21,647 nt of DNA from positions 1 to 21,647 of IMG/VR virus record IMGVR_UViG_3300049156_000001; one strand, written 5' to 3'. The notes under the pieces were generated by a model. It saw only the letters and a program-made list of their open reading frames with translations. It did not search any database and had not been told where the DNA came from. Shown here one piece after another: positions 690 to 13,597 of this stretch. A program made the translations under genes and the position numbers. Position 1 is the first letter of the stretch; each line of letters begins with the position of its first letter. Source of the stretch: a virus.

Positions 690-1772
690 ATGGCAACTTC
701 AGGAACAGTAGGACAGACGGTCTTTGAGACGCGGAAGGTGATCGACCATGCCCTCCGTCGTTGCAAGGTTCCGCCTCAGATAATCACGAGTGAGCACATA
801 GACACGGCTCTGGATCTGTTGTTCCTGAACCTGTCTGCGCTCGCGTCTTACGGAATCCCGCTATTCGTCATTGAGAAGGTTATCTTGCCCATCTATCGTG
901 GTCAGCGCTCAGTGCCGCTTCCGGCAGGAACGGTCGATATGATGACCATGAACATCCGTGACCTGAACAGGGTACTCGGTCAGACTGATTCAGCGAGTGA
1001 AGGTATTGCGGCGAATGCGTTTGATAGCGATCTGACGACGTCACTCGTGCAGACCATTGCGGCTGGATGGGTTCAGACTGACTACGGTGACGGGAATCAG
1101 GCGCAGATCGACAACTATGGCATCTTCTTCACGAACGCAGTGGCTGAAGTATGGGACATCACCATACAAGGGTCGCAGGATGGCATCACGTTCACTGACA
1201 TCTATGCGAACGCGGAGCTTGATGCTGTTCCAGGTGACTGGTTCTGGCTCGATTTGGAGGAGCAAGTCCCCTGGAGGTTCATTAGACTTCAGGCGAACGG
1301 CCTCACGATCCTCAATATCGCGGAATTCTACCTCGGAAACACTGCCAACGAGATTCCAATGCCGAAAATCGCGTTGGATAGCTACTCGAACCTCCCTGAT
1401 AAGACGTTCTTGAGCCGTCCGACGGAGTATTGGTACGATAAACAGGGAACGACGCCGAGTGGGCAGAGCATTCTGACTGTCTGGCCGCTCCCAGACACTG
1501 AATTCACGTTCTTTCAGTACATTCTCTACGTCAAACGGCAGATTCAGGACATCGGTACGATGGTCCAGGAGATTGAAGTCCCTCAACGGTGGTATGAGTT
1601 CGTGATCTGCGACCTAGCGCGCAAGTGTGTGAGGGAAATTGCTGAAGCAGACATTAGTCGACTGCCTATACTGGACGCAGACTTTGAAAAGGAGTCGATT
1701 AACGTCTGGGCTGGCGAGGATGACGGCGCTCCAGTGCGCATCACGCCACGAATAGGAGTATATACAAGGTGA
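690..1772 (+). CDS. Head-tail adaptor-like virion protein with inserted discoidin-like domain
   Basis: This 360-residue protein looks like a composite. Residues 1-97 form a helical start (TVFETRKVIDHALRRC, then LDLLFLNLSALASYGIPLFV) followed by a strand segment ending VPLPAGTVDM; the remainder resumes near residue 222, with a WPLPD motif at 265-269 and the segment EVPQRWYEFVICDLARKCV around 296-314. This arrangement resembles gp4-like or HMO-2011-type connector proteins that join portal and tail. Between the halves, residues 98-216 read as an F5/8 type C (discoidin) beta-sandwich: AFDSDLTT near 109-116, then GSQDGITFT at 161-169, RFIRLQANG near 196-204, and AEFYLG. The domain would be expected to bind sugar or another virion part. 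The ATG directly follows the previous TAA, and its GGGAAG lies inside the upstream gene. Adaptor call moderate, discoidin domain fairly confident. Confidence 0.65.
   Translation: MATSGTVGQTVFETRKVIDHALRRCKVPPQIITSEHIDTALDLLFLNLSALASYGIPLFVIEKVILPIYRGQRSVPLPAGTVDMMTMNIRDLNRVLGQTDSASEGIAANAFDSDLTTSLVQTIAAGWVQTDYGDGNQAQIDNYGIFFTNAVAEVWDITIQGSQDGITFTDIYANAELDAVPGDWFWLDLEEQVPWRFIRLQANGLTILNIAEFYLGNTANEIPMPKIALDSYSNLPDKTFLSRPTEYWYDKQGTTPSGQSILTVWPLPDTEFTFFQYILYVKRQIQDIGTMVQEIEVPQRWYEFVICDLARKCVREIAEADISRLPILDADFEKESINVWAGEDDGAPVRITPRIGVYTR
981..1337 (+). other. Discoidin (F5/8 type C)-like domain inserted in the adaptor-like protein
   Basis: This marks the inserted domain, residues 98-216 of the 360-residue protein. 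Visible hallmarks, in order, are an Ala-Asn-Ala-Phe-Asp-x-Asp-x-x-Thr start, a Gly-Trp followed by a Tyr-Gly strand, the loop Gly-Ser-x-Asp-Gly-x-x-Phe-Thr, a Trp-x-Trp strand, and a closing Arg-Phe-Ile-Arg-Leu strand followed by an Ala-Glu-Phe-Tyr-Leu-Gly strand. These match the general discoidin pattern as I know it. Ligand cannot be predicted. Confidence 0.6.
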
Positions 1773-2129: not shown

Positions 2130-5100
2130 ATGAGCGTAAAGATTACAGATTTAGGAGCCATCGTACCTCCTCTCGTTGGGACGGAGGTGATGGAGATCGT
2201 TCAGGATGGTCTGAGCAGGAAGGTCACAGTCACCGAACTTTCTGCTGGCATCGGTGGACTTGATGCGGACTTCGTAACGCTCAGCTTGAACGCTCAGCTT
2301 CCGAATGAGCGAGTGCTGACGGCTGGCACTGACATCAGCATTGTTGACGGCGGACCAGGAGGTACGATCACGATCAATGCAGTGATCCCGACTCCTCCGG
2401 CCGGTAATCTGCCGGTTCCAACGGTCAACGGCTCGATGTTGTTCTCTGACGGTGCGACTGCGTGGCTTGAAGCCGTAGATCTGGCGTGGGATACTTTCTC
2501 AGTTGCTGGTGCTAACACCATGGATCTCGCCAGTGGCGTGACGCAGGGTGCGACGCCCATGATGCGCTTCAGCACGATTGCCCCAAGTGCTAGGATGATG
2601 GAGTTCCGTTCTACCGCGTCCACGAACTATGAGATCTTCCGTTGCTACGACCAGACGGTGACGCAATACTTCAACATGCGACACGACTACTCGCTGTCGT
2701 CATCCAACCATCGGCTCCACGTCGAGCATACTGGCAACGCCGATATTCTCACGTTCGTCAACAACGGAGACATGTATTTCGCTGGTCAGTTTGACATCCT
2801 GTTCGACCGCAGCGCACAGATGCTCAAGATCGGCAACAGTTATCACATCCAGTTTGATGAGCGAGCGTCTATCGCGTCTGTTGGTGCTGGTGACGGTGCA
2901 ATCTATGTGCGGAATGACACTCCGAATGTCCTGATCTTCAAGGACGAGAACGATACTGAGTGGGTGTTGAACACTGCTGGAGGAGGCACGTTAGCAGCAC
3001 TCACCGACGTTGATCTGACCGGACAAGCTCAGTACGACCTACTCTTCAACGTGGACGGATCAAACTGGGAGGACACTGCTGGTGATCTGATCTTTGATGT
3101 TGCGGCACAGGCTCTTCAATTCGCGGCTGGATTCGGCATCAACATGGGAGCCACTCCGACCAGAGTTTTGGAGATGGCATCTTCAGGTCTTCCATCGACC
3201 ACTATCGAACATACGACTGTCGAGGTGATCGCCGAGGTCAGCACGTCAAGCAACTCAGAGGTCGACGTCACGGGTGGTGTTCTTCCGTTGCTTACTGAGG
3301 GAGATGACTACCTCATTATGGGCATTGCTCAGCATCATCAGGGCAATACTGGCGGAGAGAACGTCCACGGAGCAGATATCGCGATCGCGTCTCAAGCAGG
3401 TGTTCCGCTCAGCAACTGCCGAGATGACATTGAACCTCCTGCGTGTGCAGTTGCTTCGGATCAAGGTGCGTGGTTCACTGGTATGAACGGGATCACGTAC
3501 ACGGCTGCTGCTTACGGTCAGATTCGCCTCGAGCATTCGGCTGGAACGGCGCAGACTCACTATGTCAACAACGCGAGCTTGATGGCATTCAATCTTACTG
3601 ATTTTGGTACAGAGAATGTCGATTGGTGGAGGGACGTCACGGCTCCATTCGTTACGGTGACAGATGCCGGATGGTCAAACCTATCCCCGAGCGTTACGAT
3701 TGGCGATGGCGTCAGCGACTGGTTGATCTTCGGTACTTTCCAGTGTGATCAACCACAGGCAGGTGGACAGATCCAGTTCGGTCTGTTCGATGGCTCTGTC
3801 AATACTGAATACGCGATGCATCAGTTCGCTGATGTTGCTGACATCAAGAGCATCGTCTTCTCTGCTGTCTTAACTGGGATTGCCTCAACGACCTTCCAGA
3901 CTGCGGCTCGTGCTGTTGCCGCTTCTGGTGACACGGCTCGAATCTTTACCAGTGGTCTCCACGTTCTTCGTTTGAATAGGTTCGCACAGTACTCTATCCA
4001 ATCTGCTTCCGGTCCTACTTCCCCAGGAAGCGGAGCTGAGTTCTCGTTGCTCACCGACAGCATGGTCGCGAATTCCAACAGCGATTGGGGGATCTTCGCC
4101 TTCGTCAGGAACCAGTGGATTGGAAACACTCTCTCCGGTACTTCTTACGGTCGAGCGAATATCAACGCCGGAGGATTCACAACCATCGCAGGGTTCGATA
4201 CGCCTCCTCAAGCAGTTGTAGAGAACGCGACTAATGAGTTGACTCCTAGACCGTTGGTCCCGCGTATCACGGAGCTCACAGGCGTCGTGGCGACGGATAC
4301 CGTTGGAGCAGAACTACGGTGGATTCCTCCTGCGACGTTTGGACCTACAAGAGCAGCCCTATATCATATGGTCATGTTCACGTGGGACACGTTTGACAGT
4401 TCTGTCAACGCGACCACACTAGGTGATCCGACTGTAGATACTCAGATTGACGGTGCAGCAGTCAACCTCTTCGGCGAGTATAGCTTCCCGCTCCTTGACG
4501 GTGCAGCAGGTGAAGGTCTCGTCACTGACGGTCTTGGTCAACTGTCATTCGCGGCAGCGTCCATCCCTGACCCACTGATCCTCGGGTCTATCAACTTGAC
4601 CAGTGCGCTGTCTACTTCAACCCTCGGCGCTCCGTACACCAACGTACCGATCAACATCGGTAATAGTTTGACGGGTACGCAAGGCATGACGCAACTGTCA
4701 CGTCAGAGGATTCAGACGAAGCCTAGTGCATTCAGTTTCAACTCTACTCTCTTCATCAACATTGATGGTGCGGGTACTTCCGGGTCTGATACGTACATCG
4801 GTGGTCTTAATAGCGCGGGCATTGAAGTTGAGTTCGGCGTCGCTGTCAGGCTTCAGCATGGTCTTGCGTCTTCTGTCGTCCTGGAGACAATAACTGGAGG
4901 CGTCTTGCTTCCAGATGGTTCGTTATACGTTACAGATAAAGCAGCACAAGGCGCGTTCACTGCTGGTCGCGGTGAGTTCTGGGCGCGAAACGATTCACCG
5001 AGTACGCCGATGTTCACGACAGACACTGGCGTCGATATTGACCTGAGCGCAGGAGCAGCGAGCTCACTCCAGGCAACGATGGCCGTCGGCGCGACCACTA

Positions 5101-5864
5101 CTATTGATCTTCAGATCATCACTGGTGCTGCGCTTACGATCTTTGACGCAGCCGACTCTGACAGTGTGTCGATGGAGATCAACACTACAACGATGGCTCC
5201 GGCAGAGGCCTTCGTCTTCACAGCAAGCGTGAACGTCGAAGTCTACTCGTTTGATGAAGGCATCAACATTGACGGTGGCGATCTGAACTTGGGGTCTGCG
5301 GGTGATATCAACTTCTATAGGTACGGTGATGCGGTCAGCTCCAGCATGGGTGATGACGGAACTGATATCAGAATCCAAGTCGTTGGCGGAACATCAACCT
5401 TCTTTGTACAGGCTGATTCAATTCGCCAAAGTGAATCGGCGTCTCCTGCTCCCAACATCGCAGGTCGAGGTCAGTGGTGGACGCGTTCGGCAGCACCGTG
5501 TCGCCCGATGTACACCGACGATACTGACGTTGACCAAGAGATGGATCCATCACGTTCGGATCTCAACACACAGAACGGCAACTATACGTTCCTGATGACA
5601 GACAAAGGCAAGACGATCTACAAGGCATCAGGCGGAGCGGGTGAAACGTACACCATCCCCGCGAGTGGAGCGGTCGCGTACCAGATCGGCACATGGATCG
5701 CTATCGACAACGATGGAGGAGGTAATCTATCTATCGCCATCACGACTGACACGCTAGTCGGAACTGATGGAGCCACAGGAACTCGAACTCTTGGAGATAA
5801 CCACAGAGCGTTGATCCAGAAGATCGGTGCGACTCGGTGGCGCTATCAGGCAACTGATCTATGA
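2130..5864 (+). CDS. Large tail fibre-like structural protein, modular beta-rich
   Basis: This 1244-residue protein starts one base after the preceding stop, with GGGAG eight bases ahead of the ATG. The composition (Gly, Ser, Thr, Asp, Asn; few Lys) and absence of long helices fit a fibrous beta-structured virion protein, probably a tail fibre or receptor-binding protein. N-terminal ITDLGAIVPPLVGTEVMEIV resembles the start of other phage fibre proteins. A short module with a W/Y-x-R-x-x-x-P core occurs three times, at residues about 251-270, 938-962 and 1104-1128. Three diverged sandwich-like segments begin around Asp393, Asp530 and Asp652. A YSFPLLDG...GLVTDG turn motif lies near residue 790. 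The final hundred residues (MTDKGKTIY, then TYTIPASGAVAYQIGT and IAITTDTL) match a C-terminal domain often seen at the end of phage fibre proteins. The exact receptor is unknown. Confidence 0.8.
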   Translation: MSVKITDLGAIVPPLVGTEVMEIVQDGLSRKVTVTELSAGIGGLDADFVTLSLNAQLPNERVLTAGTDISIVDGGPGGTITINAVIPTPPAGNLPVPTVNGSMLFSDGATAWLEAVDLAWDTFSVAGANTMDLASGVTQGATPMMRFSTIAPSARMMEFRSTASTNYEIFRCYDQTVTQYFNMRHDYSLSSSNHRLHVEHTGNADILTFVNNGDMYFAGQFDILFDRSAQMLKIGNSYHIQFDERASIASVGAGDGAIYVRNDTPNVLIFKDENDTEWVLNTAGGGTLAALTDVDLTGQAQYDLLFNVDGSNWEDTAGDLIFDVAAQALQFAAGFGINMGATPTRVLEMASSGLPSTTIEHTTVEVIAEVSTSSNSEVDVTGGVLPLLTEGDDYLIMGIAQHHQGNTGGENVHGADIAIASQAGVPLSNCRDDIEPPACAVASDQGAWFTGMNGITYTAAAYGQIRLEHSAGTAQTHYVNNASLMAFNLTDFGTENVDWWRDVTAPFVTVTDAGWSNLSPSVTIGDGVSDWLIFGTFQCDQPQAGGQIQFGLFDGSVNTEYAMHQFADVADIKSIVFSAVLTGIASTTFQTAARAVAASGDTARIFTSGLHVLRLNRFAQYSIQSASGPTSPGSGAEFSLLTDSMVANSNSDWGIFAFVRNQWIGNTLSGTSYGRANINAGGFTTIAGFDTPPQAVVENATNELTPRPLVPRITELTGVVATDTVGAELRWIPPATFGPTRAALYHMVMFTWDTFDSSVNATTLGDPTVDTQIDGAAVNLFGEYSFPLLDGAAGEGLVTDGLGQLSFAAASIPDPLILGSINLTSALSTSTLGAPYTNVPINIGNSLTGTQGMTQLSRQRIQTKPSAFSFNSTLFINIDGAGTSGSDTYIGGLNSAGIEVEFGVAVRLQHGLASSVVLETITGGVLLPDGSLYVTDKAAQGAFTAGRGEFWARNDSPSTPMFTTDTGVDIDLSAGAASSLQATMAVGATTTIDLQIITGAALTIFDAADSDSVSMEINTTTMAPAEAFVFTASVNVEVYSFDEGINIDGGDLNLGSAGDINFYRYGDAVSSSMGDDGTDIRIQVVGGTSTFFVQADSIRQSESASPAPNIAGRGQWWTRSAAPCRPMYTDDTDVDQEMDPSRSDLNTQNGNYTFLMTDKGKTIYKASGGAGETYTIPASGAVAYQIGTWIAIDNDGGGNLSIAITTDTLVGTDGATGTRTLGDNHRALIQKIGATRWRYQATDL

Positions 5865-6355
5865 GTTTCTTTCACGCATCTTCTGGGATCACCCGAGGTC
5901 CGGCCGGAGTCGTTCCGTTCGTCAGTGATATTGAGATTGAGGATTCCGTTTCCTCTGGTCAAGTCGCGGCAAGGATACGCTTCGGCAGCACTGGCGGCGA
6001 CTCAAGGGACTTGTACAAAGAACACGCTCTGGGCACCTTCTTTCTCATGGGCAATGATGATGCATCTGTTCCGGTGGATCATACTGGTGAATGGACTTCT
6101 GAAGTTATCACCGCATCAGAGTGGGAGGTCGCGATGCTCTCTCTGGACTCGGGGTCGTTCCTCACCACCTTTGCAGGACTCGGGGTTTACACCACGCTGG
6201 ACACGGCTGACATCGTCTACGGGAACTTCCGAATCGGAGGCAAAGGTTACACTCCAGGCACGACGACTGGAACGGCTACCTTCCGCATCCGAGAGGTCGC
6301 GGTTCCCGCCAACTTTACCGACTTTGAAGTTATCTGCACAGGAATACAAACATGA
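5861..6355 (+). CDS. Hypothetical beta-rich virion-associated protein
   Basis: I do not recognise this 164-residue protein. Its ATG overlaps the stop of the fibre gene (ATGA) and lacks a clear ribosome binding site of its own, so it is probably translated by coupling to the fibre gene. It has few helices and alternating hydrophobic strands (AARIRFGS, GTFFLMGND, WEVAMLSLDSGSF, IVYGNFRIGG, TATFRIREVAV), suggesting a single beta-sandwich domain. No signal peptide or membrane segment is seen. Its coupling to the fibre gene suggests a fibre partner, cap or chaperone; this is inference from position only. It also overlaps the start of the next gene by four bases. Confidence 0.8.
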   Translation: MSFFHASSGITRGPAGVVPFVSDIEIEDSVSSGQVAARIRFGSTGGDSRDLYKEHALGTFFLMGNDDASVPVDHTGEWTSEVITASEWEVAMLSLDSGSFLTTFAGLGVYTTLDTADIVYGNFRIGGKGYTPGTTTGTATFRIREVAVPANFTDFEVICTGIQT

Positions 6356-7029
6356 TCACGTTGCCACCTTACATCTACGACAGAGACAGCTACCATCAAC
6401 TTCCGATGGCTGATCGTTGGATAATGAACAAGCTCCAGGTCGCAGAACGACTCGGCTATACTTGCGGACCTGTCGGTACTAGACCTGTCGTGGCTACCCC
6501 GGTGATCGTTAGACCCCAGATGAACATCTTCGGACAAGGGAAGGGAGGCTTCTACGAGTATGATGAGTGGCCGTTCGCTGCATGGGACAACGTGCCGAAC
6601 TCTAACCCTGGATACTTCTGGTGTGAGCAGTTCACAGGTCGCCACGCTTACACGCAGTTCGTTGACGACGTCGCTCGATACTGCGCGTACTCAGAACCGG
6701 TCACGCTCGCTGTGAATCAGATGTGGGTCGGCGTTGAAGACATCGCACTGACAGAAGCTCCAGCGCTCCCTGTCGAGCTACAAGGAATTTCAAAGTACCT
6801 GTATGTTGAATCCATCGGTGGCAACATCATTGAAGTGTCGCCACGAATGGGAATGACAGGCGCGAGACAAGTTATCATTGACGAATACAAGTTGATCGAC
6901 CCAACGTGGGTTGAACCCAACGACATCGAATTTGGCATGGTTGATCAACGAGTCATGCCGGATATAGCCGGAGGATTTAGATGGGAGGTTCGAGAGAACA
7001 CCCGTCGGCCCTTCACCGTAGATCTATAA
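6352..7029 (+). CDS. Hypothetical protein with ATP-grasp-like motif series
   Basis: This 225-residue protein starts at an ATG overlapping the upstream TGA, with AGGA eight bases ahead. Its motifs fall in the order expected of an ATP-grasp fold: DRWIMNKL at 21-28 and LGYTCGP at 34-40 (pre-loop helix and turn), VIVRP at 51-55 with Arg54 where a nucleotide-binding Lys or Arg usually sits, the glycine loop GQGKGG at 61-66, GYFWCEQFTG at 87-96 resembling the hinge with Glu92, and YVESIGGNIIEVSPR at 151-165 resembling the metal-binding E-x-N-P-R strand, with Ser163 replacing Asn. ATP-grasp enzymes such as RimK and D-Ala-D-Ala ligase join a carboxylate to an amine using ATP. This reading is from motifs alone; the protein is short, its substrate is unknown, and it could be a degenerate non-catalytic relative. 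Confidence 0.8.
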   Translation: MITLPPYIYDRDSYHQLPMADRWIMNKLQVAERLGYTCGPVGTRPVVATPVIVRPQMNIFGQGKGGFYEYDEWPFAAWDNVPNSNPGYFWCEQFTGRHAYTQFVDDVARYCAYSEPVTLAVNQMWVGVEDIALTEAPALPVELQGISKYLYVESIGGNIIEVSPRMGMTGARQVIIDEYKLIDPTWVEPNDIEFGMVDQRVMPDIAGGFRWEVRENTRRPFTVDL

Positions 7030-7297: not shown

Positions 7298-7654
7298 ATG
7301 GCAGGTAGCACAGCGAAGGAACGAGGGATACGGATCGGAATCAATCAGATCGTGACGTATGCCACTCTGATCCCCATACTCTGGTTCATCGGTCAGCCCA
7401 TAATCATGGATGCTATGGCCGAGGATATCAAAGAGATGGTACAGACTGAGATCGCTCCGATGAACTCGGCCTTCGTTGCGCTGCTCCGAACTAACGTGGC
7501 AAACACCAGACGGAAGATTGCTCACCTTGAATTCAAGCGTGACAATCCACCGGACGATGACTGGACGGCTCAGGATGCAGAGGACTTAGTGAATCTGCAT
7601 CTTGAGCTTTCTAGCAGCCAGCAAGCACTGACAGCATTGACGAATACTAGCTGA
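7298..7654 (+). CDS. Membrane-anchored coiled-coil protein; candidate i-spanin-like lysis protein
   Basis: The protein is 118 residues from the second of two adjacent ATGs (119 from the first). A basic start (STAKERGIRIG) is followed by one hydrophobic segment, about residues 16-35 (IVTYATLIPILWFIGQPIIM), then a long charged helical region with coiled-coil character (NTRRKIAHLEFKRD, and LVNLHLELSSSQQALTAL). A single N-terminal anchor with a helical domain beyond it is the shape of inner-membrane spanins (Rz-like), which act with an outer-membrane lipoprotein to fuse the membranes during lysis. It leads a run of lysis-type genes that includes a lipoprotein at 8330. Sequence similarity to Rz is not evident, so this is a candidate by topology and context; a pinholin-like or structural role is not excluded. 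Confidence 0.75.
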   Translation: MAGSTAKERGIRIGINQIVTYATLIPILWFIGQPIIMDAMAEDIKEMVQTEIAPMNSAFVALLRTNVANTRRKIAHLEFKRDNPPDDDWTAQDAEDLVNLHLELSSSQQALTALTNTS

Positions 7655-8106
7655 TGAACCTTACACTACATCGTTTCTCTGGCGCGACTGAATCTACCCT
7701 CGGCTTAGTATTCGTCGAGGATAGATTTTCGTGCTACTCGTTGGAAGATCAATGGAACGTACCGAAGGTTCCGGGAGAGACTCGCATCCCTCCTGGTAAG
7801 TATCAGATCATACTCCGCACAGAAGGCGGCATGAATGAACGGTACAAGGATCGGTTTGACTTCCATAGGGGAATGCTCTGGCTTCAGGACGTCCCAGAGT
7901 TCACCTTTATATACATCCATACAGGCAACAACGATGATCACTCAGAAGGGTGCATCCTTGTCGGGGATGGACAGGTTCAGAATATAACCGAGCGGGGACA
8001 GGTGACGAGTTCAGTTGCTGCGTACACCAGACTCTACAAGGTTATCACAGAAGCACTGCTTCGCGAAGAAGTGTGGCTTACAATCAAAGATGAGGAGTTA
8101 GCATGA
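7654..8106 (+). CDS. YkuD-like (DUF5675) protein, probable peptidoglycan-acting endolysin
   Basis: This 150-residue protein starts at an ATG overlapping the upstream TGA (TGATG) with no clear ribosome binding site, so it is probably coupled. The signature is IPPGKY at residues 45-50, a strand leading to His89-Thr-Gly-Asn, and Ser97-Glu-Gly-Cys100-Ile, which matches the His...S-x-G-C active-site pattern of L,D-transpeptidase (YkuD)-type folds and the phage family known as DUF5675. Cys100 and His89 would be the catalytic pair. Members of this family often occupy the endolysin position next to a holin, as here, but their exact cell-wall reaction has not, to my knowledge, been firmly established. 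There is no signal peptide, so export would rely on the holin. Family call confident, enzymatic role inferred. Confidence 0.85.
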   Translation: MNLTLHRFSGATESTLGLVFVEDRFSCYSLEDQWNVPKVPGETRIPPGKYQIILRTEGGMNERYKDRFDFHRGMLWLQDVPEFTFIYIHTGNNDDHSEGCILVGDGQVQNITERGQVTSSVAAYTRLYKVITEALLREEVWLTIKDEELA

Positions 8107-8333
8107 ACACAATCGTTGGAGCACTAATCGCCGCGTTGATTCTCTTCGGGTCTAGCATCGTTACGCTATTCACGAACAACCCGGATCTGACATTCGCGCA
8201 ACTTACGACCGCGACGTGGGTGTCGCTCGTCGGTGGCGCTGCCGTAGCATTTCTCAAGGACTTCCAGGCGATTTCCACCCGTCGCTTGGTGAACAAGGTC
8301 ACTGGATCGGGTGATGGAGGAGGTACAGTATGA
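8103..8333 (+). CDS. Holin-like small membrane protein
   Basis: This 76-residue protein starts at an ATG overlapping the previous TGA (ATGA), with GAGGAG five to six bases ahead. It has two hydrophobic segments, about residues 4-24 (GALIAALILFGSSIVTLF) and 38-50 (TWVSLVGGAAVAFL), separated by a short polar loop, then a basic tail (STRRLVNKV). Size, topology, tail charge and the position just after a probable endolysin fit a phage holin, which forms holes in the inner membrane to release the endolysin and time lysis. Similar short proteins with a segment like TNNPDLTFAQLTTATWV sit beside lysis genes in environmental phages, as far as I recall. No internal dual start typical of lambda S is seen. 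Confidence 0.75.
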   Translation: MNTIVGALIAALILFGSSIVTLFTNNPDLTFAQLTTATWVSLVGGAAVAFLKDFQAISTRRLVNKVTGSGDGGGTV

Positions 8334-9822: not shown

Positions 9823-12042
9823 ATGAGTTATTCAGAAGTCTTCGGCGGCGGAACCATCAATCCATCGCAGCGGACGTTTCTAAACCTTGTGTCTGCGGTA
9901 GACGTGACGCTCGAGTGGCCGCTCAATGCAGTCGCTGGAGATAACGTAGCAGCAGACATCATCAATGCTGACATGACTGCTCCAGGGTTGAACATCAATC
10001 TGAGTGATGCTCGTCAGGTCTCTAACGGATTCACGTCCCTCATCGTCAACATAGGGTCGCAGGACTTTACCGTCCGTGATGCACTCGGCGGAACAATCGT
10101 TTCACCGATTTCTGCGGTCGGTGGAACTGCTTGGTTCATCTACCTAGAGGACAACAGTACAGAGGATGGAACGTGGCAGACATTCCAACTCGGTGCGACG
10201 GTGTCTGTCGCCGATGCTGGTGCGCTCGCGGGTGCTGGCATCAAGGCGATCTCAACTTCGTTGAATCAACGCATCGTTCCTACGCTGACGTCTGCGACGC
10301 CGATAACATGGGTTGACGCTGACAGAGCGCAGTTCACAATCTGGGGCGGAGGCGTCGGTGTCTTAGATCTTCCTGCCCCAGGAACGGTCGGTGCTGACTG
10401 GTTCAGTATGATTCGCAACGAGGGAACGGGCATCCTTACGGTGACCCCTCCTTCTGGTCTGATCGACAGTGCGGCGACGCTCATTATGAATCCCGGAGAC
10501 TCGGCGTTCATTGTGACCAACGGTACTGACTTCTTCACTATCGGCCTCGGCGGTTCAACGGTCGTCGGGTTTGATTTCGTGCAGATTGACATCTCCGGCT
10601 CTGGTGACTTCATCTTAACTGGCGTTCAGTTGAACCGAATCTCTTATGAGTTTGTTGGTCTGCTGACAGGTACTCGGAAGGTCGTTGTACCGAATACGAT
10701 TCAGCAGTACTGGATCGGGAACTTTACGACCGGAGCGTTCACCTTTGAAATAGCGACGGCGGCTCAAGTCACGCCCATCCAGATCATTCAGAACAACAGA
10801 AGCATTCTATACTGCGACGGCACTGACGTCGTTGACGCTGAGACTGGTACACTCACTCCACCGATCACCATCGGTCAGGGCGGAACATCAGCGACAGACG
10901 CAGCGACGGCTCTGGCGAACCTCGGTGGTATCAGCGACACGCGCGAAGTGAACACTCAGTTGCTCAGTGGTCTAGGCGGAGGCGGCGACCTGTCAACGAA
11001 CAGAGATTTGGTGCTAGATGTTGATAACCTGACAGTCGAACTAACGATTGATCTGTCCGCAGATGTGCTGGCGTTCTATGATGACGACGCTGGAGCAATG
11101 CGTAAGACGCCTCTGTCTAACATCGCGGCAATCACAATTGAAGAAGAAGGTGCGCCGCTCGCAACACTGGCGAACACACTGAACTTCACTGGCGGAATCG
11201 TTACAGCATCCGGAGCCGGAGCGACTAAGACCATTGACATCCCTATTGAGGCAAGCACCGTCTTCGGTAGAATGCTCAGAGGTGATGGAGCCGGTGGATG
11301 GGAAGAATGGAACGGAGCTAGACTCACGACCACTCCTACTGAACTGAGGGTGGACGGAGCAACGATCGTCGCTACTCCTAACCTGACCATCGAGACCAGT
11401 ACAAATAACTACGGATGGTTCAGTGGCTTCAGTAATATCGTTTCCTTCAGTGGTGTCGGTACAGTTGACACGTTCAACCTCAGCGGGTTTGATACGATAG
11501 AGTTCGATGGCCCCTCTCTTAAACTGTGGGAACAAGGCTCAGCTCCTGGAGCAAACGAAGCCAGCTATGCTCAACTCTACCTGCGTACTGATCCATCCTA
11601 CCCATACCTGATGCTCCAGCAGGACGATGGCAACGAAGTTCCCATTTGTGAACAGGGTACGTTCACTCTGGATTGGGATGACGGCTTCTCTGACGCCTCT
11701 AACGTCAACAACTACTTCTACACTCGCATCGGCAACTTTGTTCATGCGGTGCAGATCGGGTCCAACCTCGGTAACTCCAACGCGAACAACTGCGGCACGA
11801 GTACAGGTGTCCCGGTCGCATTGCGTCCAACGACGAACAGGTGGTGCGGAGTCGGGTCGTTCGTTGACAATGCTTCCATCATCTCGCTGTGCCAGCTACG
11901 TCTGAACACTGATGGCACGATGGATGCTTACATCCTGGACGGTACTTCTGACCCCGGAGAGTGGGGTAACTTCTGGACGACGTCTGGAGTCAAAGGACCG
12001 AACGCTGGCACGTCCTTCTCCTGGCTGATAGAGGACGCTTAG
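9823..12042 (+). CDS. Tail fibre-like structural protein with GQGGTSATDA motif
   Basis: This 739-residue protein has a strong GGAGG site and starts one base after the adaptor stop. Its start MSYSEVFGGGTINPSQ is typical of a group of fibre-like virion proteins in environmental phages. Residues 1-125, 130-245 and 250-345 look like three beta-rich domains, the third with VVVPNTIQQYWIGN, TTGAFTFEI and SILYCDGTDVVDAET, a pattern common in phage fibres. It is followed by ITIGQGGTSATDAATALANL at residues 348-367, a well-known phage tail-fibre motif. Residues 577-608 carry the W/Y-x-R-x-x-x-P type module also found three times in the 1244-residue fibre. The Trp- and Cys-containing end (WCGVGSF, GEWGNFWTT) probably forms the tip or head-binding domain. 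Receptor unknown. Confidence 0.85.
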   Translation: MSYSEVFGGGTINPSQRTFLNLVSAVDVTLEWPLNAVAGDNVAADIINADMTAPGLNINLSDARQVSNGFTSLIVNIGSQDFTVRDALGGTIVSPISAVGGTAWFIYLEDNSTEDGTWQTFQLGATVSVADAGALAGAGIKAISTSLNQRIVPTLTSATPITWVDADRAQFTIWGGGVGVLDLPAPGTVGADWFSMIRNEGTGILTVTPPSGLIDSAATLIMNPGDSAFIVTNGTDFFTIGLGGSTVVGFDFVQIDISGSGDFILTGVQLNRISYEFVGLLTGTRKVVVPNTIQQYWIGNFTTGAFTFEIATAAQVTPIQIIQNNRSILYCDGTDVVDAETGTLTPPITIGQGGTSATDAATALANLGGISDTREVNTQLLSGLGGGGDLSTNRDLVLDVDNLTVELTIDLSADVLAFYDDDAGAMRKTPLSNIAAITIEEEGAPLATLANTLNFTGGIVTASGAGATKTIDIPIEASTVFGRMLRGDGAGGWEEWNGARLTTTPTELRVDGATIVATPNLTIETSTNNYGWFSGFSNIVSFSGVGTVDTFNLSGFDTIEFDGPSLKLWEQGSAPGANEASYAQLYLRTDPSYPYLMLQQDDGNEVPICEQGTFTLDWDDGFSDASNVNNYFYTRIGNFVHAVQIGSNLGNSNANNCGTSTGVPVALRPTTNRWCGVGSFVDNASIISLCQLRLNTDGTMDAYILDGTSDPGEWGNFWTTSGVKGPNAGTSFSWLIEDA

Positions 12043-12043
12043 T

Positions 12044-13597
12044 ATGCCAGAACTTCCAGTAAAAATTCGCTCAGCTCCAGGTATCAAGCGTGATGGGACG
12101 CAGCTTGAGGGTGAGAGCTACATAGACGGTCAGTGGTGTCGGTTTCAGCGTGGACGTCCGCGAAAGATGGGTGGATACCAGCGAGTGACAGACACTGTCC
12201 CAGAGTACGCACGAGGCATGACCAGCTTCAGTGCTGATGGTCTGCGTTACCTCCACATCGGTGGTGAGTCGCAGATCACTCAGTACGTTGTCTCCGGAGC
12301 AGGGACGCTCAGTGCGCAGAACGACAGGACTCCAGGAGGGTTCGTATCTCAGTTGGATCATCTGTGGCAGTTGGATCACTTCTACGACGGAGTGACGTTC
12401 ACGACTGATGTCGTTGCTCATCCTGGTAGGAACCTGAACAATATCGACAACACAGTAGAAACCGACATATACATTGGCTCGGCAACTGCGGCCGGAGTAC
12501 TGATTGACGCGACGCTGACCTCTGTCAGTGGCGGCATCGTCACCCTCGGACCGTACCTTATGTTCTACGGCAATAGTGGACAGATCGGCTGGTCAGACGT
12601 CAATGACCCCACGACATTGGACGGGGAAGCGTTCATTACTCAGCAGAAGGTTGTGAAAGGACTGCCTCTGCGCGGAGCAGGTCAGGGTCCGGCCGGTATC
12701 TTCTGGTCGTTGGATTCACTCATTCGTGCGGTATTCGTTGGCGGAACTCCAGTTTGGCAGTTCGATACACTCGCCAGTGACATCAGTATCTTGTCTTCGC
12801 AAGGAGTGGTTGAGTACGACGGGACGTTCTTCTGGCCTGGAGTAGATCGCTGGATGATGTTCAACGGTGTCGTGCGCGATATCCCGAACGACTTCAATGT
12901 CAATTACTTCTTTGACAATTTGAACTATACGCATCGGCAGAAGGTGTTCGGGTTCAAGGTTCCGCGCTTCGGTGAGATCTGGTGGTGCTACCCTAGAGGC
13001 AACGCTACTGAATGCACTCACGCGGTCATCTTCAACGTGAAGGAAGGGTACTGGTACGACACAGAACTTCCGCTTCAGGATGAGAACGCTCCATTGCCAT
13101 CCTCAAGCGGAAGGAGCGCTGGAATCTATGCGAAGGTCTATAACAAGCCGTTCCTGGTCGGTCTTGAGAACGTAGGAACTATCTTCACTCCAACCTATGA
13201 ACTCTGGCAGCATGAGACCGGAGTGGACAAAATTGCGCAGTCGCAGATTGACGCCATCCCGTCGCACTTTGAAACGGCAGAGATCGGAATGCCGGTAGAT
13301 GATCAGCAGCCGAACAACGCTGAGATGAGGGTGGCGCGAATTGAACCAGACTTCGTTCAGTCCGGACCTATGGATGTCACTATTAAAGGTCGGGTGAATT
13401 CAAAGGCTCCGGTCGTTGAAGCGGCAGCGGCGACGTTCGAAGAGACAGCAGCAACTCCGACGGATGAGACGGTCAAGCTGCGTGAGATCCGCCGATTGAT
13501 GAGCTTCAAGTTTGAGAGCAACGTTCAAGGCGGCAACTACGAGTTCGGTGAGACTCTTGCCCATATGGAACCGGCAGGAGACAGGGTAGAATCATGA
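12044..13597 (+). CDS. Tail nozzle-like structural protein
   Basis: This 517-residue protein starts one base after the fibre gene's stop, with GAGG about nine bases ahead. It opens with PGIKRDGTQLEGESYIDGQW and then CRFQRGRPRKMGGYQR (residues 12-47), a hallmark of a large family of podovirus virion proteins. It continues as a beta-rich, Trp/Tyr/Gly-rich protein resembling a beta-propeller (repeats such as LMFYGNSGQIGWSD, AVFVGGTPVWQF, GTFFWPGVDRWMMFNG, GEIWWCYP). This is the type of protein that, in P22 (gp10) and SU10-like phages, forms the nozzle closing the tail tube. The C-terminal part (residues 425-517) is a separate mixed region with an Ala/Glu-rich stretch. The context beside adaptor and fibre genes supports the call; no measured structure is claimed. 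Confidence 0.8.
   Translation: MPELPVKIRSAPGIKRDGTQLEGESYIDGQWCRFQRGRPRKMGGYQRVTDTVPEYARGMTSFSADGLRYLHIGGESQITQYVVSGAGTLSAQNDRTPGGFVSQLDHLWQLDHFYDGVTFTTDVVAHPGRNLNNIDNTVETDIYIGSATAAGVLIDATLTSVSGGIVTLGPYLMFYGNSGQIGWSDVNDPTTLDGEAFITQQKVVKGLPLRGAGQGPAGIFWSLDSLIRAVFVGGTPVWQFDTLASDISILSSQGVVEYDGTFFWPGVDRWMMFNGVVRDIPNDFNVNYFFDNLNYTHRQKVFGFKVPRFGEIWWCYPRGNATECTHAVIFNVKEGYWYDTELPLQDENAPLPSSSGRSAGIYAKVYNKPFLVGLENVGTIFTPTYELWQHETGVDKIAQSQIDAIPSHFETAEIGMPVDDQQPNNAEMRVARIEPDFVQSGPMDVTIKGRVNSKAPVVEAAAATFEETAATPTDETVKLREIRRLMSFKFESNVQGGNYEFGETLAHMEPAGDRVES

What the first reader, a model, noticed from the sequence alone, without database searches (positions are those of the whole stretch)
6352..7029. Compact ATP-grasp-like protein inside a structural operon
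Seen: DRWIMNKL (21-28), VIVRP (51-55), the Gly loop GQGKGG (61-66), FWCEQFTG (89-96) and IIEVSPR (159-165) occur in the order and rough spacing of ATP-grasp enzymes: about 38 residues from Arg54 to Glu92, then about 69 to Glu161. Known: ATP-grasp ligases (RimK, D-Ala-D-Ala ligase) attach amino acids or peptides using ATP, and phage-borne amidoligases have been proposed to modify virion proteins. Inferred: this gene, coupled to a beta-rich protein after a long fibre gene, could modify a virion component. Ser163 in place of the usual Asn is a caution, and 225 residues is small.
Basis: partly seen in the sequence, partly recalled or inferred. Interest (0 to 1): 0.7.

Follow-up and report, generated by a model that had tools for sequence, protein, structure and literature searches.

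The report
Virus-only mini ATP-grasp enzyme family
This small phage gene belongs to a large, so far unlabelled, virus-only family that has the fold and nearly all the catalytic residues of ATP-grasp enzymes, the class that uses ATP to join an acid to an amine; its substrate is unknown, and the idea that it decorates the virus particle is not supported by where its relatives sit.

Summary
Confirmed: window 6352-7029 (+) encodes a 225-aa protein with all the motifs listed. It belongs to a large phage family (PHROG 3577, 'unknown function') that no Pfam or NCBIfam model recognises. In 125 distinct homologues the residues named as critical are near-invariant (R54 122/125 with Lys in the other three, E92 124, E161 125, R165 125), as are K27 (124) and E153 (125). 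AlphaFold models of this protein (pLDDT 65) and of a 194-aa relative (pLDDT 91) return ATP-grasp enzymes as their significant Foldseek PDB matches (PylC, L-amino-acid ligases, Ddl, PsnB; best E 1.6e-6). So ATP-grasp is well supported. Ser163 is not disqualifying: E. coli PurT has the identical EVSPR; most of the family has His there. Sequence profiles do not reach RimK/Ddl, and the family lacks defining R2K-clade features and the peptide-ligase arginine, so it is filed only as a divergent, N-terminally minimal ATP-grasp family. The virion-modification idea is not supported: relatives sit beside speD and baseplate genes, bilin-synthesis genes, or replication genes. Best reading: an accessory ATP-dependent ligase acting on an unknown small-molecule or protein substrate.

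The parts
6352..7029 (+). ATP-grasp-like protein, 225 aa, PHROG 3577 family
   Evidence: ORF and translation; PHROG 3577 E = 3.3e-9; Foldseek of AlphaFold models to ATP-grasp enzymes
6430..6432 (+). codon of K27, probable counterpart of the linker Lys of RimK/Ddl
   Evidence: Lys in 124/125 homologues, Arg in one; equivalence inferred from motif order
6511..6513 (+). codon of R54, basic residue of the strand before the Gly loop
   Evidence: Arg 122/125, Lys 3/125
6532..6549 (+). Gly-rich loop GQGKGG, residues 61-66
   Evidence: sequence; G61 113/125, G63 100/125
6625..6627 (+). codon of E92, hinge glutamate
   Evidence: Glu 124/125
6808..6810 (+). codon of E153, first metal-site acidic residue
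   Evidence: Glu 125/125; PurT has Glu at the matching place
6832..6846 (+). codons of E161-V-S163-P-R165, the ExN-type metal motif plus Arg
   Evidence: E161 and R165 125/125; column 163 is His in 121 and Ser in 2; identical EVSPR in E. coli PurT
5861..6355 (+). small 164-aa protein upstream, stop overlaps the ATP-grasp start codon (ATGA)
   Evidence: homologues upstream of the enzyme in L001 (53%) and L002 (42%); no family match
2130..5864 (+). 1244-aa fibre-like protein upstream (context only)
   Evidence: ORF; only short, 28-33% identical matches in L001 and L002; no informative family match

Best explanation
The gene encodes an ATP-grasp enzyme, probably catalytically competent, of a previously unlabelled family found so far only in viruses. 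Shown: predicted ATP-grasp fold and near-invariant residues at the places expected for the ATP and metal site. Inferred: K27, R54 and the Gly loop hold the phosphates; E92 lies at the adenine hinge; E153 and E161 (with H/S163) bind Mg2+; R165 stabilises an acyl-phosphate intermediate. Inferred by analogy with PurT, PylC and L-amino-acid ligases: a carboxylate is activated with ATP and joined to an amine. In place of a full pre-ATP-grasp domain it has only about 45 N-terminal residues, plus a family-specific C-terminal extension (IPVW ... RxGF) that may form the acceptor site. Its role is accessory: modifying a metabolite or a host or phage protein during infection. The substrate is not known.
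For: Foldseek matches of two AlphaFold models are ATP-grasp enzymes, mostly ligases; the good model has pLDDT 91 and pTM 0.86; viral library hits are ATP-grasp proteins. K27, R54, E92, E153, E161 and R165 near-invariant in 125 proteins, with Arg/Lys exchange at 54 and at 27. EVSPR shared with PurT. Strong purifying selection: 80% identity where most neighbours have 28-74%. Variable gene context in different phage groups.
Against: No sequence-level link: Pfam and NCBIfam silent, hhalign against a RimK/Ddl profile not significant. TM-scores only 0.35-0.51 against PDB. His in place of the metal-binding Asn in most members. The model of the window protein itself is of middling confidence (pLDDT 65). 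The ligase reaction is an inference from the nearest structures; some ATP-grasp proteins are kinases.
Confidence: 0.7

Rival explanations
1. One reading: it adds an amino acid or peptide to a virion protein, here the fibre or the coupled small protein.
For: In the window clade the gene follows the fibre and the small protein and overlaps the latter's stop codon; in cyanomyovirus-like contigs it lies close to the baseplate genes gp25 and gp6.
Against: Other relatives sit beside speD, bilin-synthesis genes or replication genes with no structural partner; the fibre varies greatly while the enzyme does not.
Confidence: 0.12
2. It is an ATP-grasp-fold kinase or another ATP-dependent phosphotransferase rather than a ligase.
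For: ATP-grasp kinases share the fold: PPIP5K2 is among the listed PDB matches and an inositol trisphosphate kinase among the viral ones; the arginine that marks the peptide-ligase assemblage is not conserved.
Against: The best matches are ligases; the metal-site motif with Arg at +4 is shared with PurT and biotin carboxylase.
Confidence: 0.12
3. A catalytically dead ATP-grasp-fold protein used for binding or structure.
For: The Asn of ExN is replaced by His in nearly all members, and the protein is short and lacks a substrate domain.
Against: All acidic and basic active-site residues are near-invariant across very divergent members; decay of at least one would be expected.
Confidence: 0.06

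Closest known systems
PHROG 3577 (phage protein family of unknown function; cyanophages S-T4, ACG-2014f, BUCT-ZZ01)
   Same: All 11 members of the first alignment match it, P0001 at E = 3.3e-9; same conserved motifs.
   Different: Not previously labelled as ATP-grasp in the library; P0001 lies on a long branch with two other contigs, has Ser for His at 163 and a longer C-terminal part.
PurT (formate-dependent GAR transformylase, E. coli)
   Same: Identical EVSPR with Glu as the preceding acidic residue; ATP-grasp.
   Different: PurT is 392 aa with pre-ATP-grasp and C-terminal domains; PurT was not among the listed structure matches.
PylC (4ffl), L-amino-acid ligases (3vot, 4wd3), 3df7, D-Ala-D-Ala ligase, graspetide ligase PsnB
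   Same: Best structural matches of the two models; E from 1.6e-6 to about 1e-3.
   Different: About 290-410 aa against about 195-225 aa; 10-19% identity; TM-scores 0.35-0.51; no sequence-profile link with RimK/Ddl.
R2K clade of ATP-grasp (CDC123 and phage R2K.2 proteins; PMC4431377)
   Same: A divergent ATP-grasp group found in some caudoviruses and proposed to modify proteins.
   Different: R2K lacks the linker Lys and the GxG loop motif; this family keeps a conserved Lys ahead of the first core strand and a Gly-rich loop, and matches neither R2K model.

Membership tests
ATP-grasp superfamily | RAGNYA plus kinase-like two-part fold | tested here: met
   Foldseek of two AlphaFold models: the listed matches are ATP-grasp superfamily structures; moderate TM-scores
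ATP-grasp superfamily | basic residue near the end of RAGNYA strand 2 | tested here: met
   R54: Arg 122/125, Lys 3/125, in strand 48-54 of the L019 model
ATP-grasp superfamily | Lys in the linker before the RAGNYA domain | tested here: inconclusive
   K27 conserved in 124/125 in a segment like the DK......G..P of RimK/Ddl; spatial equivalence not superposed
ATP-grasp superfamily | acidic residue in the fourth strand of the kinase-like part | tested here: met
   E153 in 125/125; Glu in PurT too
ATP-grasp superfamily | ExN motif at the last core strand (Asn sometimes another polar residue) | tested here: met
   E161 in 125/125, followed by ExH in 121 and ExS in 2; EVSPR in PurT
ATP-grasp superfamily | significant profile match | tested here: not met
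   no Pfam or NCBIfam match; hhalign against RimK/Ddl not significant. Membership therefore rests on predicted fold and residues
ATP-grasp superfamily | ATP-dependent activity | not testable with these tools
   needs the purified protein
[quoted passage not shown]
   the stretch after E92 (GxHxSxDY) holds no conserved Arg; column 97 is variable; register judged by motif order
R2K clade | linker Lys absent, replaced by a Lys/Arg in the loop after strand 2 | tested here: not met
   K27 conserved in 124/125
R2K clade | loop after strand 2 lacks the GxG motif | tested here: not met
   Gly-rich loop kept in most members: G61 113/125, G63 100/125
R2K clade | match to the R2K_2 or R2K_3 model | tested here: not met
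   no match for any of 56 members; the R2K_2 model does find the known Myrna member, and the family profile does not find Myrna
PHROG 3577 | HMM match | tested here: met
   E = 3.3e-9 for P0001; 11 of 11 members

The most novel reading that the evidence does not exclude
A widespread virus-only enzyme family performing a ligation (or other ATP-dependent activation) not known from cells: a stand-alone ATP-grasp core without a full substrate domain, with a private C-terminal extension and a His-for-Asn metal site, carried by T4-like phages, cyanophages and podoviruses to make a phage-specific metabolite or protein modification.
Probability: 0.3. Interest if true: 0.75.

Novelty: new variant of a known kind. 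Interest (0 to 1): 0.52.

Why it matters
It turns a large phage protein family of 'unknown function' (hundreds of IMG/VR loci from two capped scans) into a testable enzyme family with named catalytic residues. Phage-borne ATP-grasp proteins have been proposed to modify proteins or make metabolites, but their substrates are largely open; a small, well-conserved member carried by cultured cyanophages can be expressed and assayed.

Tried and rejected
Pfam, NCBIfam and consensus-sequence hmmscan: no informative match. PDB sequence search: only short spurious matches such as VapB-type antitoxins and a ketol-acid reductoisomerase. hhalign with a RimK/Ddl profile: not significant; one local hhalign script failed. 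Cellular or prophage relatives: none in two genome-contig scans, but the patterns were narrow. A scan for relatives of the small upstream protein found none. R2K membership considered and rejected on defining features. Papers: PHROG 3577 is not mentioned in the papers held, and no description of this family was seen in the search results. Considered and not adopted: a polyamine-ligase role suggested by speD next door in cyanomyovirus-like contigs, because speD is a neighbour in one syntenic lineage only. The S-SRM01 copy was left out of alignments because its reading frame is interrupted.

Full report
Observation. The finding's ORF and motifs are present at the stated coordinates. The start codon overlaps the stop of the 164-aa gene upstream (ATGA at 6352-6355). 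The window is a 21.6-kb virus record. Its 'stabilisation' protein (12044-13597) is 45% identical to that of Caulobacter phages GB2A, RW, RLK and KcrB, and it has an SU10-type adaptor, so it is probably a short-tailed phage. No close relative of the whole window is in the phage collection.

Family. P0001 matches only PHROG 3577, 'unknown function'. tblastn in named phages finds only Synechococcus phages, annotated hypothetical. Two scans of 84,980 cellular genomes found none, with the caveat that the search patterns were narrow. No member matches a relevant Pfam or NCBIfam model.

Conservation test. From the loci held I extracted 125 distinct complete family proteins. K27 is Lys in 124 (Arg in 1); R54 is Arg in 122 and Lys in the other 3; E92 is Glu in 124; E153, E161 and R165 are invariant; column 163 is His in 121 and Ser in 2, P0001 being one of those. 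In 33 representatives below 60% identity the picture is the same.

Fold test. AlphaFold2 with 53 family sequences gives a middling model of P0001 (pLDDT 65, pTM 0.66; core well predicted, C-terminal quarter poor) and, with 44 sequences, a good model of the 194-aa relative from locus L019 (pLDDT 91, pTM 0.86). The second model's are 3df7 (E 1.6e-6), Ddl, PylC, PsnB, LysX and a carbamoyl-phosphate synthetase. From their descriptions, the listed rows are ATP-grasp superfamily entries (my reading of the names). TM-scores of 0.35-0.51 for these matches mean a shared core rather than a close structure. In BFVD, after an uncharacterised protein that is 48% identical, most of the named significant hits are ATP-grasp proteins of phages and giant viruses. 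The link rests on structure prediction, because profile-profile comparison with RimK/Ddl is negative.

Reading of the active site (inference from order and motif, not from superposition). K27 lies in an [ND]KL..A..LGY.CGP segment resembling the DK......G..P linker of RimK/Ddl. R54 is in the strand before the Gly-rich loop. E92 is the hinge Glu. E153 and E161 are the metal-binding acidic residues, with H/S163 for the usual Asn, and R165 follows. E. coli PurT has an upstream VE and then EVSPR, identical to 161-165, so Ser163 is compatible with catalysis. The family has only about 45 residues before the first clear core strand, so it lacks a full pre-ATP-grasp domain, and it has a conserved C-terminal extension (IPVW ... 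RxGF) whose role is unknown.

Membership. Superfamily membership is met on fold and on the second, third and fourth catalytic features listed in PMC4431377, not on a profile match. The R2K clade of phage and eukaryotic ATP-grasp proteins is defined there by loss of the linker Lys and of the GxG loop; both are kept here, so it is not filed as R2K. The arginine that marks the large peptide/amide-ligase assemblage is not conserved, so placement in that assemblage is not claimed, although the nearest structures are ligases. Working like a ligase and being a member of the peptide-ligase assemblage are kept apart.

Context. Clustering of neighbouring genes shows several settings. In the window clade (3 contigs): fibre, small protein, ATP-grasp. 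In cyanomyovirus-like contigs: a 252-aa protein, ATP-grasp, speD (AdoMet decarboxylase, Pfam E 4e-30), an 80-aa protein, gp25, gp6. In other T4-like contigs: bilin reductase and heme oxygenase, ATP-grasp, late-transcription coactivator, gp59, and a gp32-like protein (by resemblance); or a UvsW-like helicase, ATP-grasp and gp46/47-like genes; or PhoH- and DexA-like genes, ATP-grasp. There is no constant structural partner. In the window clade the enzyme is 80% identical across contigs whose fibre is about 30% identical, the opposite of what a fibre-specific modifier would suggest, though not proof. I therefore judge the virion-modification idea unsupported and favour an accessory enzyme acting on a metabolite or a general protein target.

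Precedent. Phages are known to carry RimK-like and other ATP-grasp genes, including cyanophage S-RIM8, the LUZ24-like phage UFV-P2 (PMC3890496) and R2K members in jumbo phages (PMC7824862). What is new here is the recognition of this particular compact family; no description of it was seen in the papers held.

Limits. No biochemistry; no coordinate superposition; the model of the window protein itself is of middling confidence; cellular absence was tested only with narrow patterns; contigs in IMG/VR are partly redundant; the ligase reaction and the substrate class are inferences.

Noticed in passing
L012 (Synechococcus phage S-SRM01), about 11980-12577: The family gene of this phage is interrupted in its reading frame as deposited, so the record shows only a shortened CDS; it could be a sequencing error or a broken gene.
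   Followed up: no
Loci such as L113, L133, L136, L141, L169: Uncultured T4-like contigs carry a ferredoxin-dependent bilin reductase and a heme oxygenase directly upstream of the family gene, a pigment-synthesis pair known from aquatic phages.
   Followed up: partly
Cyanomyovirus-like loci (e.g. L049, L050, L060): speD (AdoMet decarboxylase) lies directly downstream of the family gene, and a conserved 252-aa protein without Pfam match (glycosyltransferase-like by eye) directly upstream.
   Followed up: partly
window 7654-8106: DUF5675 protein (E 3e-26) with weak Tlde1 and YkuD similarity, placed like a lysis gene.
   Followed up: no
window 8103-8333: A 76-aa membrane-type (holin-like) protein is 88% identical to its copy in L002, one of the most conserved genes of the region.
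   Followed up: no
window 690-1772: Weak F5/8 type C (carbohydrate-binding-like) domain match in a 360-aa protein (E 0.0019, below the cut-off).
   Followed up: no
L107 (Synechococcus phage S-RIM8), 3866-4744: A separate true RimK-like gene near the terminase and tail sheath genes of a cyanomyovirus, distinct from this family.
   Followed up: no
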